In this document: in pieces, positions 33,493-39,102 of the stretch
Layout of the letters: the number at the start of each line of letters is the position of its first letter
Numbering within the stretch: the stretch's first letter is position 1
Source: Ricordea florida
Taxonomy: Eukaryota > Cnidaria > Anthozoa > Corallimorpharia > Ricordeidae
Reading direction: 5' to 3'
DNA: 64,000 nucleotides
NCBI GenBank assembly: GCA_949710005.1
Contig: OX453282.1
Span: 14,644,509-14,708,508 of the forward strand
The notes under the pieces: model-generated
Database searches by the model: none
What the model was told of the DNA's origin: nothing
The model's input: only the letters and a program-made list of their open reading frames with translations
Program-made: the position numbers and the translations under genes

Positions 33493-33626
33493 CACCAAGT
33501 ACCAATGAATGGTGGAGGGCGTCTGTACCTGTTAACCAACTTTCTTAATGTGCTTTGTTTGCCTCCATACTGTCTTATTCTTTTGAACACTCTTTTGTAT
33601 CTTTTGATGCGTCGCCTTTTAGGCAT
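33492..33626 (-). CDS. 44-residue arginine/lysine-rich protein
   Basis: A very short ORF encoding MPKRRRIKRYKRVFKRIR and a continuing basic sequence. Its TGA overlaps the ATG of the next basic gene (ATGA arrangement), suggesting translational coupling. It is probably a DNA-condensing peptide. It also overlaps candidate tail exon M in another frame. Confidence 0.55.
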   Translation of the reverse strand: MPKRRRIKRYKRVFKRIRQYGGKQSTLRKLVNRYRRPPPFIGTW

Positions 33627-33685
33627 TCTCTCAAATGAAGGGACATGAATGGTTGAATGGGTTTAAATGACATTTGAATGCATTC
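33575..33685 (-). CDS. Candidate tail exon M (ambiguous)
   Basis: A pyrimidine tract and AG (TTTTTTTATCTGTTAG) precede 33685. Phase 0 is open for 36 codons. It overlaps the 44-residue basic gene, so this segment may simply be that gene's leader. Confidence 0.3.
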   Translation of the reverse strand, partial: ECIQMSFKPIQPFMSLHLRECLKGDASKDTKECSKE

Positions 33686-33809
33686 CTAACAGATAAAAAA
33701 AACACACACACCATATATCATTTGAAATCTTTTAATGAATAATAACCATGTTTTTTTTTACAAGAGAATAGTGTAATTCCATCTTCTCGCACTCCATGAT
33801 CATAAACGT

Positions 33810-34004
33810 TCATTGTCTTCCTATAAAGCAAATAACGGGTTCATGAACAAAACCGTGGTGTTGTCTTATAAATTCTTGAATGGAAAGACTTATGAATTCA
33901 TGATCATCATCCCGAGGAAAATATTGTACAAGATTACCGTGATTATCTTGATGAAAGAATCTTACATTGCCTTCATGAGCATCATCATTGTCATCACTGA
34001 TGGC
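33810..34004 (-). CDS. Candidate tail exon L (64 codons)
   Basis: The acceptor is GTTTTATTGTAG before 34004, with phase 0 open to TGA at 33810. The product is rich in Asp and His (AISDDNDDAHEGN and on). It has no ATG near its start, so it is most sensibly read as an exon joined to the RING gene. Confidence 0.5.
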   Translation of the reverse strand, partial: AISDDNDDAHEGNVRFFHQDNHGNLVQYFPRDDDHEFISLSIQEFIRQHHGFVHEPVICFIGRQ

Positions 34005-34025
34005 CTACAATAAAACAAGTTTTGT

Positions 34026-34139
34026 TTATATCACTTGTGATGATAAAGCCATGTGTTCGAATAAAAGGACATAATCTGGAGCATCAAACATGTGGTCAAA
34101 TAAAAGGGCATAATCTTGATCATCATCAATATATTCACC
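34026..34139 (-). CDS. Candidate tail exon K (37 codons)
   Basis: The acceptor is TTTCTTTTCTAG before GGTGAATAT. Phase 0 encodes a short acidic segment with two related units (YALLFDHM and YVLLFEHM), then stops. There is no start codon at its beginning. Tails K and J begin with the same GGTGA. Confidence 0.5.
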   Translation of the reverse strand, partial: GEYIDDDQDYALLFDHMFDAPDYVLLFEHMALSSQVI

Positions 34140-34165
34140 CTAGAAAAGAAAGGTGATATTTTTTT

Positions 34166-34372
34166 TTATTCTAAGGATAAGACATTGAAGTGCCAGAAGA
34201 GAGCATTATAACCTTTACAATCACAATAATCCATTTCATCAACCATATGGTAGCAGTAACTACAATCACAACCACAATAGCTATATTGATCTACATCTTG
34301 TTGGCATTCGTCACATTGACATTGTGCTAAATGAAATAACAGTTCACTATCACTATCATCACTATCTTCACC
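34166..34372 (-). CDS. Candidate tail exon J, Cys-rich (68 codons)
   Basis: The acceptor is TTTTTTTTTTGCCAG before GGTGAAGATAG. Phase 0 gives an acidic start and then ten cysteines in a cluster (CQCDEC, CGCDCSYC, CDC) that could bind metal. It ends in TAA at 34166. It has no initiating ATG. Confidence 0.52.
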   Translation of the reverse strand, partial: GEDSDDSDSELLFHLAQCQCDECQQDVDQYSYCGCDCSYCYHMVDEMDYCDCKGYNALFWHFNVLSLE

Positions 34373-34396
34373 CTGGCAAAAAAAAAGAAAAATAAC

Positions 34397-34534
34397 TTAT
34401 TTGAATTTTCTCATAAAATCAAGCCATAACCTTCGGCTTACTACATCTAAATCTTCACAAATATGTTCAATGAGTGGTACATCTGCATCCCGTAAATTGG
34501 GAACACCATATCTATAACGAAGAAAACTTGTACA
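34397..34534 (-). CDS. Candidate tail exon I (45 codons)
   Basis: The acceptor is TTTTTTTCCTAGAG before 34534. If the second AG is used, phase 0 is open for 45 codons (CTSFLRYRYGVPNLRDADVP and on). If the first AG were used, the frame would run only 29 codons in an unlikely phase. Confidence 0.48.
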   Translation of the reverse strand, partial: CTSFLRYRYGVPNLRDADVPLIEHICEDLDVVSRRLWLDFMRKFK

Positions 34535-34548
34535 CTCTAGGAAAAAAA

Positions 34549-34695
34549 CTATAATGTGTTACACCATTCGATTCTACTCATGATGAAAACTATGTCAAGA
34601 TATATCTCCAGAAGACTAAGTTTGGCAACTTGTAAACTTGCTTGATTGTGTTTATCCATAACATATCTTGCACATTCAGCAAGCATGTAAAAAAT
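34549..34695 (-). CDS. Candidate tail exon H (48 codons)
   Basis: The acceptor is TTTAGTTTTTGTAG before 34695. Phase 0 is open for 48 codons of helical sequence (IFYMLAECARYVMDKHNQAS and on). Confidence 0.5.
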   Translation of the reverse strand: MFYMLAECARYVMDKHNQASLQVAKLSLLEIYLDIVFIMSRIEWCNTL

Positions 34696-34717
34696 CTACA
34701 AAAACTAAAATTAAAAT

Positions 34718-37536: not shown

Positions 37537-37557
37537 CTGGAAAATATAAAAGACAAT

Positions 37558-37665
37558 TTATAGAGTTTGTTTGTAAAGATTGACAATCTTATATTCATTA
37601 TCTCCTACTTTCATGGTGACAACAATATTATGGGGTATTTGAATGTCTATGATATTACTCATCAC
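37558..37665 (-). CDS. Candidate tail exon D (35 codons)
   Basis: The acceptor is TTTTTTTTCTTTCTTAG before GTGATGAG. Phase 0 encodes a short beta-type segment (IIDIQIPHNIVVTMKVGDNE) ending at TAA 37558. Confidence 0.52.
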   Translation of the reverse strand: MMSNIIDIQIPHNIVVTMKVGDNEYKIVNLYKQTL

Positions 37666-37719
37666 CTAAGAAAGAAAAAAAAAGTTTAAGTGTATTAAAT
37701 CAATTTTTTAAAGACATCA

Positions 37720-37802
37720 AGGAGGGGGGGGGGGGATGGGGGGTTCCCCCCACCAAAAAAAAAAATAAAATAAAAAATAAAAAAATAAAAATAAAATAAA
37801 AA
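37720..37802. repeat. Low-complexity G-run and A-rich tract
   Basis: A run of 12 or so G, then GGGGGGTTCCCCCC and a long A-rich stretch, lying between tail exons D and C. Confidence 0.85.
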
Positions 37803-37809
37803 GATTTTT

Positions 37810-37920
37810 TTAATCACAATATTGTACATACAAATGCAAACGAATTTTTTCTTTTTCTTTGAAATAGACTATTTCTGTGTTTGGGACAACCTGTATGCAT
37901 GATACCATATGCTCCATGGT
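37810..37920 (-). CDS. Candidate tail exon C (36 codons)
   Basis: The acceptor is CTTTTTTTTCAG before ACCATGGAG. Phase 0 reads TMEHMVSCIQVVPNTEIVY and on, and stops at TAA 37810. Confidence 0.52.
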   Translation of the reverse strand, partial: TMEHMVSCIQVVPNTEIVYFKEKEKIRLHLYVQYCD

Positions 37921-38004
37921 CTGAAAAAAAAGAAAAGTTATTTTTTTTAGTGGCCTCCATCCTCCCCTTACAGCCACCCCTAACCTCACGTCAAAAAAAA
38001 AGAT

Positions 38005-38208
38005 TTAACAACGGAGCATACATACAATATCACATACTTCTTTGATGAAAGTTGGATTGTGTATAACATCAATATTGGTGGCACTCTCTAAAAGCTCTCT
38101 TATAGTATAGTAGTTGTGAAAAAATCGAAACGGGTTGGTTATAATTCTATTTTGCTGCTGCAACTTATATTTAAGAGTTGACTTTGTAGCTTTTAGTTTG
38201 ATCAATGC
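38005..38208 (-). CDS. Candidate tail exon B (67 codons)
   Basis: The acceptor is TTTTTTTTTCTATAG before GCATTGATC. Phase 0 is open for 67 codons of helical, basic sequence (ALIKLKATKSTLKYKLQQQN and on) and has no upstream ATG, which argues that it is an exon, not a separate gene. Confidence 0.55.
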   Translation of the reverse strand, partial: ALIKLKATKSTLKYKLQQQNRIITNPFRFFHNYYTIRELLESATNIDVIHNPTFIKEVCDIVCMLRC

Positions 38209-38232
38209 CTATAGAAAAAAAAAGAAAAATTA

Positions 38233-38415
38233 TCAAATGAGGGAATCAAAAAGAACTCGTCTTTCGCAATAATCCATTGGTGTATAATCATCCCATAAAT
38301 TAAAACCTATACAAAGGGCTTTTTGTAATAACATCTTGACAATCGATTCAGTGTTGGAAGTTCGTAAGTTTCGTTCTTGCTTATCCTTGACATACAGAAT
38401 CAGTTCATTATAAGT
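38233..38415 (-). CDS. Candidate tail exon A (60 codons)
   Basis: The acceptor is TTTTTCTTTTTTTTAG before ACTTATAATG, 141 bp after the donor at 38556. Phase 0 is open for 60 codons (TYNELILYVKDKQERNLRTS and on), with no ATG at its start. It is the first acceptor after the RING donor. Confidence 0.57.
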   Translation of the reverse strand, partial: TYNELILYVKDKQERNLRTSNTESIVKMLLQKALCIGFNLWDDYTPMDYCERRVLFDSLI

Positions 38416-38433
38416 CTAAAAAAAAGAAAAACA

Positions 38434-39102
38434 TTAAGGTAAACGAGATTGTACATGTCTTGTTGCCGAGTAAAAATAATAAATGGCTTTGGCCAGGAAA
38501 CACAAACCAAGTATGACTAATAAAATTATTATGATTGTATTCAAGTCAATTCTTACCAGCCGAATCCTTCGTTGGAACTCTGGATCTTGTAAGAGGGCAT
38601 CTGTGGCTTCTTCAGAGGTCATAATGTACGTGGATGGTAATTGTTTCCTGCAATGCGGGCAGTCAAACCGTCTGTTGTCCAACCAATGTTTTAGGCAAGG
38701 ATCACAAAGTGGCTTTTTACAACATGGTGTTGGAGGGGCTGATTCGCCTTCAAAACAAACCAGACAAGGACCGTCAATGGGTGGATCTCGCGGTATAGTC
38801 AGAGGATTGGCTGCAACTGCTCCTGGTTCCTGGTTGTCCGGCTGTTGCTGAGTTGTTTCAGGTGGTGTTGCATCAGCATCAACAGCAGCAGCAGAAACAG
38901 ATGGCGGTGTCACAGGATCAGCGGATGTAGATGGTGTCACATCAGGAGCGGATGGTCCGGCTTCGTTATTTGAATTTAAATTAAACATATGGGACGACCC
39001 AGAAGGCGAAGGCGATACAGGGTCGCTGGAAGAAGAAGAAGAAGAACTTGTTGCTGGTCTTTTGGCAGCACCTCTTTGGCTCTGTTGTCTACGCTTGGGC
39101 AT
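38434..39102 (-). CDS. RING-finger protein with membrane tail and internal splice donor
   Basis: The unspliced frame encodes 222 residues from the ATG at 39102. It has a basic start (MPKRRQQSQRG), a long Ser/Pro/Ala-rich linker and a RING-type finger with Cys at 113, 116, 127, 128, 133, 136, 148 and 151 plus His139. Residues 189-205 or so form a membrane helix. RING proteins of this kind act as E3 ubiquitin ligases. After codon 182 the DNA reads CTG-GTAAGA, a good splice donor exactly at a codon boundary. Using it would remove the membrane helix and attach one of the tail exons A-M. TATA-like GTATATAA lies about 120 bp upstream. Confidence 0.8.
   Translation of the reverse strand: MPKRRQQSQRGAAKRPATSSSSSSSSDPVSPSPSGSSHMFNLNSNNEAGPSAPDVTPSTSADPVTPPSVSAAAVDADATPPETTQQQPDNQEPGAVAANPLTIPRDPPIDGPCLVCFEGESAPPTPCCKKPLCDPCLKHWLDNRRFDCPHCRKQLPSTYIMTSEEATDALLQDPEFQRRIRLVRIDLNTIIIILLVILGLCFLAKAIYYFYSATRHVQSRLP
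38551..38558 (-). promoter_or_regulatory. Predicted splice donor of the RING gene
   Basis: CTG followed by GTAAGA on the minus strand, with the last exon base at 38557. The junction is phase 0, matching the open phase of most downstream tail exons. Confidence 0.6.

What the first reader, a model, noticed from the sequence alone, without database searches (positions are those of the whole stretch)
33575..39102. One RING head with about a dozen exchangeable tail exons
The minus-strand RING gene has CTG-GTAAGA after codon 182, exactly at a codon boundary. Behind it are short open segments ending at 38233, 38005, 37810, 37558, 37276, 34549, 34397, 34166, 34026 and 33810. Each is directly preceded by a T-rich tract plus AG, and each is open in phase 0 (segment I needs the second of two adjacent AGs). 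Several (A, B, H, I, J, K, L) have no ATG at or near their start, so they make no sense as separate genes. Each ends in a stop a short way before the next acceptor. Read-through of the donor instead gives a membrane-anchored RING protein. I know of no described Polinton or adintovirus with such a cassette. If real, it would let one element aim a ubiquitin ligase at many targets through alternative splicing.
Basis: partly seen in the sequence, partly recalled or inferred. Interest (0 to 1): 0.93.

Follow-up and report, generated by a model that had tools for sequence, protein, structure and literature searches.

The report
Viral RING gene with swappable tails
A virus-like mobile element in this genome carries one RING (ubiquitin-ligase-type) gene front end followed by about a dozen alternative back ends that splicing could attach one at a time, so a small element could make a whole set of differently aimed proteins; the pattern is conserved in dozens of copies, but no RNA has been looked at.

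Summary
The window holds a degenerate 21-kb Polinton/adintovirus-like element (TIRs, 6-bp TSD). Its minus-strand RING exon ends at a splice donor on a codon boundary. In relatives each opens in phase 0 at a pyrimidine-tract AG and ends in its own stop. The genome gives 135 match rows for the RING exon. Diverged lineages keep the donor at the same boundary (GTAAGA, GTAAGT, GTACGT, GTGAGA); those read in full carry 12-15 partly different phase-0 tails. Of 63 such tails in seven loci, 33 have TAG acceptors that are themselves in-frame stops and 9 have no methionine; parts before any ATG evolve as protein. Best reading: alternative 3' splice-site choice joins one RING head to one of many tails, or reads through to a membrane anchor. 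Closest known: adenovirus E4orf6 (one donor, few tails) and insect lola. Against: no RNA data, a damaged window copy, four tails without constraint among close copies, two tails without distant homologues, an unusual zinc ligand, and target choice only inferred.

The parts
33064..33241 (+). left terminal inverted repeat of the element (partner 54013-54188)
   Evidence: arms 94-95% complementary; identical 6-bp direct repeat ATAGTC outside both ends
54013..54188 (-). right terminal inverted repeat
39220..39227 (-). TATA box candidate (TATATAAG) of the RING transcription unit
   Evidence: exact TATATAAG in 11 of 20 other copies, about 110 nt before the ATG
38557..39102 (-). RING head exon, 182 codons, ending at the shared donor (GTAAGA from 38556)
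   Evidence: profile matches RNF125/RNF8/UHRF1 RING domains at E 5e-7 to 1e-6
38434..38556 (-). read-through tail: 40 codons, hydrophobic membrane-anchor-like segment
   Evidence: hydrophobic read-through in several unrelated sequences in other lineages, but short and without an anchor in the L031 lineage
38233..38415 (-). tail A
   Evidence: intact in 17 of 19 copies; homologues in L041, L031, L030, L027, L033
38005..38208 (-). tail B
   Evidence: intact in 16 of 19 copies; 77 genome matches, 63 with an open frame of 67-69 codons; dN/dS 0.19 among close copies
37810..37920 (-). tail C
   Evidence: intact in 13 of 18 copies; no homologue among tails of the other lineages compared
37558..37665 (-). 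tail D
   Evidence: intact in 15 of 17; L041 homologue contains no Met
37276..37536 (-). tail E (in this copy the frame runs on through the F acceptor; 61 codons in intact relatives)
   Evidence: intact in 11 of 16; no homologue among tails of the other lineages compared
37277..37323 (-). tail F, first piece (interrupted by an insert)
   Evidence: uninterrupted 57-codon exon in L013; intact in 12 of 17
35010..37276 (-). 2.27-kb insert splitting tail F, flanked by TA; holds a 57-nt tandem repeat
   Evidence: absent at this place in L013
34881..35009 (-). tail F, second piece
34718..34858 (-). tail G frame (acceptor lost in this copy, present in relatives)
   Evidence: intact in 12 of 17 copies
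34549..34695 (-). tail H
   Evidence: intact in 15 of 17
34397..34534 (-). tail I (acceptor side shortened in this copy)
   Evidence: intact in 12 of 17
34166..34372 (-). tail J, Cys-rich, possibly zinc-binding
   Evidence: 87 genome matches, 69 within 8 kb downstream of a RING head on the same strand; 9 invariant Cys in 8 aligned tails; intact in 12 of 17
34026..34139 (-). tail K
   Evidence: intact in 10 of 15
33810..34004 (-). tail L, with an internal donor-like GTAAGA in phase 0
   Evidence: intact in 12 of 14
33575..33685 (-). acceptor 'M', more likely serving the following core-protein-like ORFs than a tail
   Evidence: phase 0 behind the acceptor in 7 of 15 copies with a match; shifted by one base in L019, L021, L023, L024, L026
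33295..33626 (-). two small basic, core-protein-like ORFs (likeness by eye), then AATAAA at 33296

Best explanation
The locus is one transcription unit of a Polinton/adintovirus-like element. It runs from a TATA box just upstream of the RING ATG to a probably shared poly(A) signal behind two core-protein-like ORFs. The host spliceosome joins the single donor at the end of the RING exon to one of many 3' splice sites. Each choice gives the same disordered-plus-RING head with a different C-terminal tail of about 35-110 residues, ending at the tail's own stop. An unspliced transcript instead gives, in most lineages seen, the RING with a membrane anchor. Shown by sequence: head, donor, acceptors, phase, stops, conservation across diverged copies, absence of usable ATGs in many tails, tandem amplification of one tail type. 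Inferred: that the junctions are used, that the RING is an active E3, and that tails choose substrates or places.
For: Donor: GTRAG exactly at the codon boundary in 44 of 49 further heads. In the 40 of 41 larger loci that could be aligned there, base 1 is G in 39, base 2 T in 40, base 3 A in 39, base 5 G in 40, base 6 A or T in 40, while the following bases vary; the most diverged heads use GTACGT (5), GTGAGA (1) and GTAGGT (1). Phase: 28 of 31 loci scanned have p<=0.02 for phase 0 being the longest frame, e.g. 16 of 17 sites in L041 and 17 of 18 in L039; antisense control 75/58/56, rest of window 33/45/52. No usable ATG: of 63 acceptors in seven loci chosen for a longest phase-0 frame of at least 30 codons, 33 are TAG and so themselves the in-frame stop (the other 30, CAG, are open 4-44 codons upstream), 9 frames have no Met, 35 have the first Met after codon 10. 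Protein-level evolution before any Met: 7 tails, 192 codons, pN 0.25 against pS 0.57, changes by codon position 57/43/85. In the L032 lineage all 12 tails measured have dN/dS 0.13-0.72. Tails A, B, D, F, G, H, I, J, K, L have homologues in other lineages. Tail B: 63 of 77 genome matches have an open frame of 67-69 codons. Tail J: 69 of 87 matches lie within 8 kb downstream of a RING head, using 103 of the 135 head rows. Tails do not look like internal exons: GTRAG occurs in 3 of 11 lineage-2 tails, conserved in I (near its end) and L only.
Against: No RNA evidence of any kind. The window copy is degenerate (PolB split over several frames, F interrupted, G acceptor lost, I and E altered). Among close copies dN/dS is 1.03-2.05 for E, H, I and K and 0.88 for G, which fits decay after insertion but shows no constraint there; K shows none before its Met between lineages either (pN 0.34, pS 0.32). 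Tails C and E have no homologue in the other lineages compared. 46 of 203 tail instances in the close copies are broken. L030 has lost the donor; L050 and L075 show none. L029 and L042 have a head with few or no tails; 18 of 87 J matches have no RING head within 8 kb upstream on the same strand. The L031 lineage's read-through has no membrane anchor. The head only weakly matches Pfam RING models.
Confidence: 0.87

Rival explanations
1. A row of separate small genes, each with its own start codon, expressed through a non-coding spliced leader as in adenovirus late regions.
For: Acceptor-per-ORF layout and a probable shared poly(A) signal look like adenovirus late units; in L013 tails C, D, E, F, G have an ATG in the first two codons; acceptor M precedes ATG-starting core-protein-like ORFs.
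Against: 9 of 63 tails have no Met, 35 have the first Met only after codon 10, and the pre-Met part is conserved as protein; uniform phase 0 is not expected if the leader is non-coding; L041's D homologue has no Met at all.
Confidence: 0.06
2. One ordinary multi-exon gene whose exons are joined in series.
For: Tail L carries a phase-0 donor-like site conserved in two lineages.
Against: Tails end in conserved stops (157 of 203 instances intact); GTRAG inside tails is rare (3 of 11 tails in lineage 2, of which I and L conserved).
Confidence: 0.02
3. The tails are a silent DNA archive copied by recombination onto the RING gene, like switching cassettes, rather than used by splicing.
For: Synonymous divergence is uneven along the locus (head pS 0.28, tails 0.02-0.12 in the same copies), and two unrelated read-through anchors occur behind very similar heads, so recombination probably happens.
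Against: Archive copies would not need acceptors and phase, both of which are conserved; in the head ends I looked at I saw no tail fused at DNA level to a head.
Confidence: 0.03
4. Chance openness in AT-rich, T-rich DNA.
For: Short ORFs; T-rich tracts abound; blind scan of W across the insert is unremarkable (5 of 14).
Against: Shuffles give 0.32 such segments against 8; homologous tails at 30-68% identity between L013 and the L032 lineage keep phase and stop; antisense and rest-of-window controls are flat.
Confidence: 0.01

Closest known systems
Adenovirus E4orf6 splice donor (E4orf6, E4orf6/7, E4orf6/DBP)
   Same: A viral head ORF with a donor; unspliced read-through gives one protein, splicing gives head-plus-other-tail proteins (12 of 47 passages of PMC9499273 shown). 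That E4orf6 is itself an adaptor of a ubiquitin ligase is recalled, though the passages name a ubiquitin ligase substrate. This element has an adenovirus-type protease and core-protein-like ORFs (by eye).
   Different: Two alternative tails described there against 12-15 here; here the tails open in one phase and many have no Met; the head here is RING-type; the tails are short dedicated exons, some tandemly duplicated, not other genes.
Drosophila lola (and mod(mdg4), recalled)
   Same: Common N-terminal domain with at least 20 isoforms differing in the C-terminal part by splicing, with different binding specificities suggested (12 of 15 passages of PMC5127561 shown).
   Different: Host transcription factor with BTB head; lola's exon layout and own poly(A) sites are recalled, not tested; here tandem acceptors sit in about 3-4 kb with few internal poly(A) signals (2 in about 3.4 kb in each of 8 copies).
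Polinton/Maverick and adintoviruses
   Same: TIRs, 6-bp TSD, PolB, rve-chromo integrase, adenovirus-type protease.
   Different: No RING-plus-tail cassette turned up in the listings of eight paper searches on Polintons, Mavericks or adintoviruses (only the top 4-20 rows of each were shown) or in the passages shown of PMC11071296 (12 of 21 places) and PMC6431247 (6 of 6).
Cellular single-subunit RING E3 ligases (RNF125, RNF8, UHRF1, RNF4)
   Same: Detectable RING homology over the zinc-binding core.
   Different: The position of the usual zinc-ligand His reads Lys in all six aligned heads, behind an invariant Cys pair; activity unknown.

Membership tests
Polinton/Maverick (adintovirus-like) | terminal inverted repeats and 6-bp target duplication | tested here: met
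   TIR of about 178 nt, ATAGTC on both sides
[quoted passage not shown]
   PF03175 E 2.7e-19 in one frame, 0.0057 in a second (gene broken into several frames)
Polinton/Maverick (adintovirus-like) | retrovirus-type integrase with chromodomain | tested here: met
   rve 1.9e-12, Chromo 9.2e-10
Polinton/Maverick (adintovirus-like) | adenovirus-type protease | tested here: met
   Peptidase_C5 5.9e-7
Polinton/Maverick (adintovirus-like) | packaging ATPase and double-jelly-roll capsid protein | tested here: inconclusive
   weak P-loop hits at 48855-49199, no Pfam hit for the 364-aa ORF at 47152-48246
RING E3 ubiquitin ligase | RING fold by sequence | tested here: met
   profile E 4.8e-7 to RNF125; Pfam RING models below cut-off
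RING E3 ubiquitin ligase | eight canonical zinc ligands | tested here: inconclusive
   invariant Cys pair and other Cys, but the His position is Lys in the six aligned heads
RING E3 ubiquitin ligase | ubiquitin transfer | not testable with these tools
   needs biochemistry
common-head/alternative-tail splice gene (lola type) | one donor behind a shared head and several mutually exclusive 3' exons in the same phase | tested here: met
   sequence level only:
common-head/alternative-tail splice gene (lola type) | spliced transcripts | not testable with these tools
   no RNA data available
common-head/alternative-tail splice gene (lola type) | own poly(A) signal behind each tail (recalled, not essential) | tested here: not met
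   two AATAAA/ATTAAA in about 3.4 kb in each of 8 lineage-2 copies

The most novel reading that the evidence does not exclude
A family of virus-like mobile elements maintains an evolvable exon library. One RING head is combined through a single splice donor with 12-15 exchangeable terminal exons that duplicate, diverge and are lost by lineage, producing a repertoire of differently targeted or differently placed ubiquitin ligases, plus a membrane-anchored one by intron retention, from about 4 kb. I know of no such modular arms-race device in any virus or transposon.
Probability: 0.55. Interest if true: 0.95.

Novelty: new variant of a known kind. Interest (0 to 1): 0.9.

Why it matters
Viruses are known (recalled) to carry single ubiquitin ligases or adaptors aimed at one or a few host proteins. 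A cassette of a dozen or more alternative tails behind one RING head would be an efficient way for a small element to hit many targets, and the tail library would record, lineage by lineage, which host proteins were worth attacking. With 135 head match rows in one genome and several diverged lineages, it is directly testable by ordinary RNA sequencing and interaction screens. It also suggests that gene callers that look for ATG-starting ORFs miss much of this coding content: a profile search of 5.8 billion predicted proteins with the Cys-rich tail found only two ORFs.

Tried and rejected
Pfam on seven tails and PHROGs on five: nothing convincing. IMG/VR and GTDB scans with the head profile: no relative. 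Structure: the F/H/I tail family is predicted as a helical hairpin (pLDDT 79.6) with no PDB match at E <= 0.001; the Cys-rich tail model is poor (pLDDT 46) and was not used. A suspected match between an ENA ORF's extension and an L031 tail failed (E 3.4). dN/dS among close copies was set aside as the main test because synonymous divergence there is low in E-L (0.02-0.12); those values are reported all the same. In one search tail G was paired with a different tail (G2) between lineages; that value is dropped. Rejected as tail: acceptor M. Host organism not determined.
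Full report
WHAT IS THERE. The finding lies in a 21.1-kb element, window 33064-54188, with terminal inverted repeats of about 178 nt (94-95%) and the same 6 bases, ATAGTC, outside both ends. It encodes fragments of a type B DNA polymerase, an rve integrase with chromodomain, an adenovirus-type protease and a GRF zinc protein. 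It is a Polinton/Maverick of the adintovirus kind, and a damaged copy: the polymerase is spread over several frames.

CHECK OF THE OBSERVATION. The donor directly follows codon 182, and the ten acceptors are at the stated places and open in phase 0, with I needing the second of two AGs. Scanned blindly across the insert the window copy gives only 5 of 14.

RELATIVES. The RING exon has 135 match rows in the same 538-Mb genome; some heads match in two pieces, so the number of places is about 100. I read 20 copies of about 7.5 kb, 6 of 5.6 kb, 8 of 4.3 kb, and 49 short plus 6 longer head ends. Close copies show what the window copy lost: tail F is one 57-codon exon cut in two here by the insert; tail G has a proper acceptor in relatives; E normally stops after 61 codons; I starts in phase 0 at its first AG. 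So the family has 12 tails, A to L, plus the read-through. Counting every tail found in W and 18 copies, 157 of 203 are intact, that is acceptor AG (within 9 nt in frame), phase 0 and family length within 4 codons. The last segment (acceptor 33685) is in phase behind its acceptor in only 7 of 15 copies with a match and probably serves the core-protein-like ORFs.

DIVERGED LINEAGES. Other heads, 36-65% identical to W over the matched part (77% for L041 and L042, which match only over the C-terminal half), keep the layout with a partly different tail set (L027, L028, L030-L041, and L092-L097 as far as read). L041 has 15 phase-0 segments, two of them overlapping; L027 and L031 have 13 each once nested frames are counted once. 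In L027, L030 and L031 one tail type (SIDDC, a predicted helical hairpin) occurs several times in a row, each with its own acceptor, so new tails arise by tandem duplication. Tails A, B, D, F, G, H, I, J, K and L have cross-lineage homologues; C and E have none. L029 and L042 have a head with few or no tails.

DONOR. Of 49 further heads 43 have GTAAG and one GTGAG exactly at the codon boundary; three (L068, L071, L072) have a changed head end with GTAA a few bases on; L050 and L075 show no donor. Of 41 larger loci 40 could be aligned there: base 1 is G in 39, base 2 T in 40, base 3 A in 39, base 4 A in 34, base 5 G in 40, base 6 A or T in 40, while the bases after that vary. The most diverged heads use GTACGT (L093-L097), GTGAGA (L092) or GTAGGT (L033) at the same place. 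Different codons but the same donor pattern points to selection on a splice site. L030 has lost it.

PHASE. In 28 of 31 loci with a recognised donor, phase 0 is the longest frame more often than chance at p<=0.02 (examples: L041 16 of 17, L039 17 of 18, L035 17 of 18); the exceptions are W scanned across its insert, L017 (4 sites) and L042 (6 sites). Four of the 35 loci were left out because the donor pattern was not matched (L016, L029, L030, L033; L016 and L029 do have a GTAAG donor). Controls: antisense 75/58/56, rest of window 33/45/52. Copies are related, so the p values are not independent; the lineages are the real replicates.

NO INDEPENDENT START. In seven loci (L013, L041, L031, L027, L093, L096, L097) I took the 63 acceptors whose phase-0 frame is the longest and at least 30 codons. 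In 33 the acceptor is TAG and so itself the in-frame stop, and the frame opens exactly at the junction; the other 30 are CAG and open 4-44 codons upstream. Nine frames have no Met; 35 have the first Met after codon 10; 8 have one in the first 3 codons. Tail B in the genome: 77 matches, 63 with an open frame of 67-69 codons, three of these with a stop inside the match. The part before any Met still evolves as protein: L013 against L041, 7 tails, 192 codons, pN 0.25, pS 0.57, differences by codon position 57/43/85; K alone shows no constraint (pN 0.34, pS 0.32).

SELECTION. In the L032 lineage (8 copies, 7 for J) all 12 tails measured have dN/dS 0.13-0.72, the head 0.01, the read-through 0.74 (B, K and a few others were not measured there). 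Between lineages pN/pS is 0.43-0.84 for seven tails (A, D, F, H, I, J, L; an eighth, G, was paired with the wrong tail and is dropped) and 0.15 for the head, with pS 0.42-0.90. Against: among the close copies E, H, I and K give 1.03-2.05 and G 0.88. These tails have low synonymous divergence there, so changes after insertion dominate, but they give no support by themselves. In both lineages the tails evolve faster than the head, as expected if they face changing partners; relaxed constraint would look similar.

LINKAGE. Tail J has 87 matches. Against 103 of the 135 head rows (the rest mostly second pieces), 69 lie within 8 kb and 77 within 25 kb downstream of a RING head on the same strand, 62 of them at 1.7-3.4 kb; 10 have no head upstream on the same strand within 25 kb.

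HOW IT PROBABLY WORKS. One pre-mRNA, one donor, many acceptors, probably one poly(A) site: only two AATAAA/ATTAAA occur in about 3.4 kb of cassette in each of 8 lineage-2 copies. Splicing to one acceptor puts that tail's stop in frame and turns all later tails into 3' UTR; no splicing gives a hydrophobic anchor in most lineages seen, but not in the L031 lineage. GTRAG inside tails occurs in 3 of 11 lineage-2 tails and is conserved only in I and L. The head is related to RING domains of RNF125, RNF8 and UHRF1, with an invariant Cys pair and Lys where the usual His ligand stands in the six aligned heads. That the product is an active E3 and that tails pick substrates or places is inference; no RNA or protein data were available.

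KNOWN OR NOT. The nearest viral precedent is the adenovirus E4orf6 donor, whose read-through and splices give E4orf6, E4orf6/7 and E4orf6/DBP (12 of 47 passages shown, PMC9499273); adenovirus splicing plasticity in general is in PMC7070027 (passages). The nearest host precedent is lola with at least 20 isoforms (passages, PMC5127561). Eight paper searches on Polintons, Mavericks or adintoviruses listed no paper with such a cassette; apart from passages of PMC11071296 and PMC6431247 the hits were seen only as listings, and only their top rows, so this is weak evidence of absence. I file it as a new variant of a known kind: the splicing logic has precedents, but I know of none for the scale, the RING head and the mobile-element setting.

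Noticed in passing
window 33810-34004; loci L009-L026, L032, L035-L041: Tail L holds a second donor-like GTAAGA in phase 0, present in 20 of 22 copies where the tail start was found (one GTGAGA, one rearranged) across two lineages with different lengths before it; L may act as a second small head. The encoded VRFF is also conserved, so coding alone could explain it.
   Followed up: partly
L032 lineage, head versus cassette: Synonymous divergence of the head (pS 0.28) is several times that of tails (0.02-0.12); spacers differ at about 0.03-0.05 per base in the same 8 copies; recombination or homogenisation of the cassette is possible, unexplained.
   Followed up: partly
window 38434-38556 and copies: Two unrelated hydrophobic read-through sequences occur behind very similar heads in the close lineage, suggesting exchange.
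   Followed up: no
window 35495-36292 and 16254-16712: Ten-fold 57-nt tandem repeat inside the insert, giving an Arg/Glu-rich repeat ORF; a similar ORF lies at 16254-16712.
   Followed up: no
window 420-15265: A second large element with a single 1573-codon polymerase-like ORF and an integrase-like ORF, different from the one studied; no RING match in it. Identity by eye only.
   Followed up: no
L097, position 1356 onwards in RING orientation: In a distant lineage an acceptor leads in phase 0 straight into a core-protein-like frame with the PPFIG(S/T)W motif also seen at window 33492-33626.
   Followed up: no
ENA ORFs P0002-P0017: RING heads with a similar conserved end before the junction exist on other public contigs (up to 773 kb), so the head may not be confined to this genome; their downstream DNA and host could not be read. 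P0001, P0018 and P0019 are near-identical to parts of L031.
   Followed up: partly
L029: RING head with donor and membrane anchor but no recognisable phase-0 tails in the scan of the next 5 kb.
   Followed up: no
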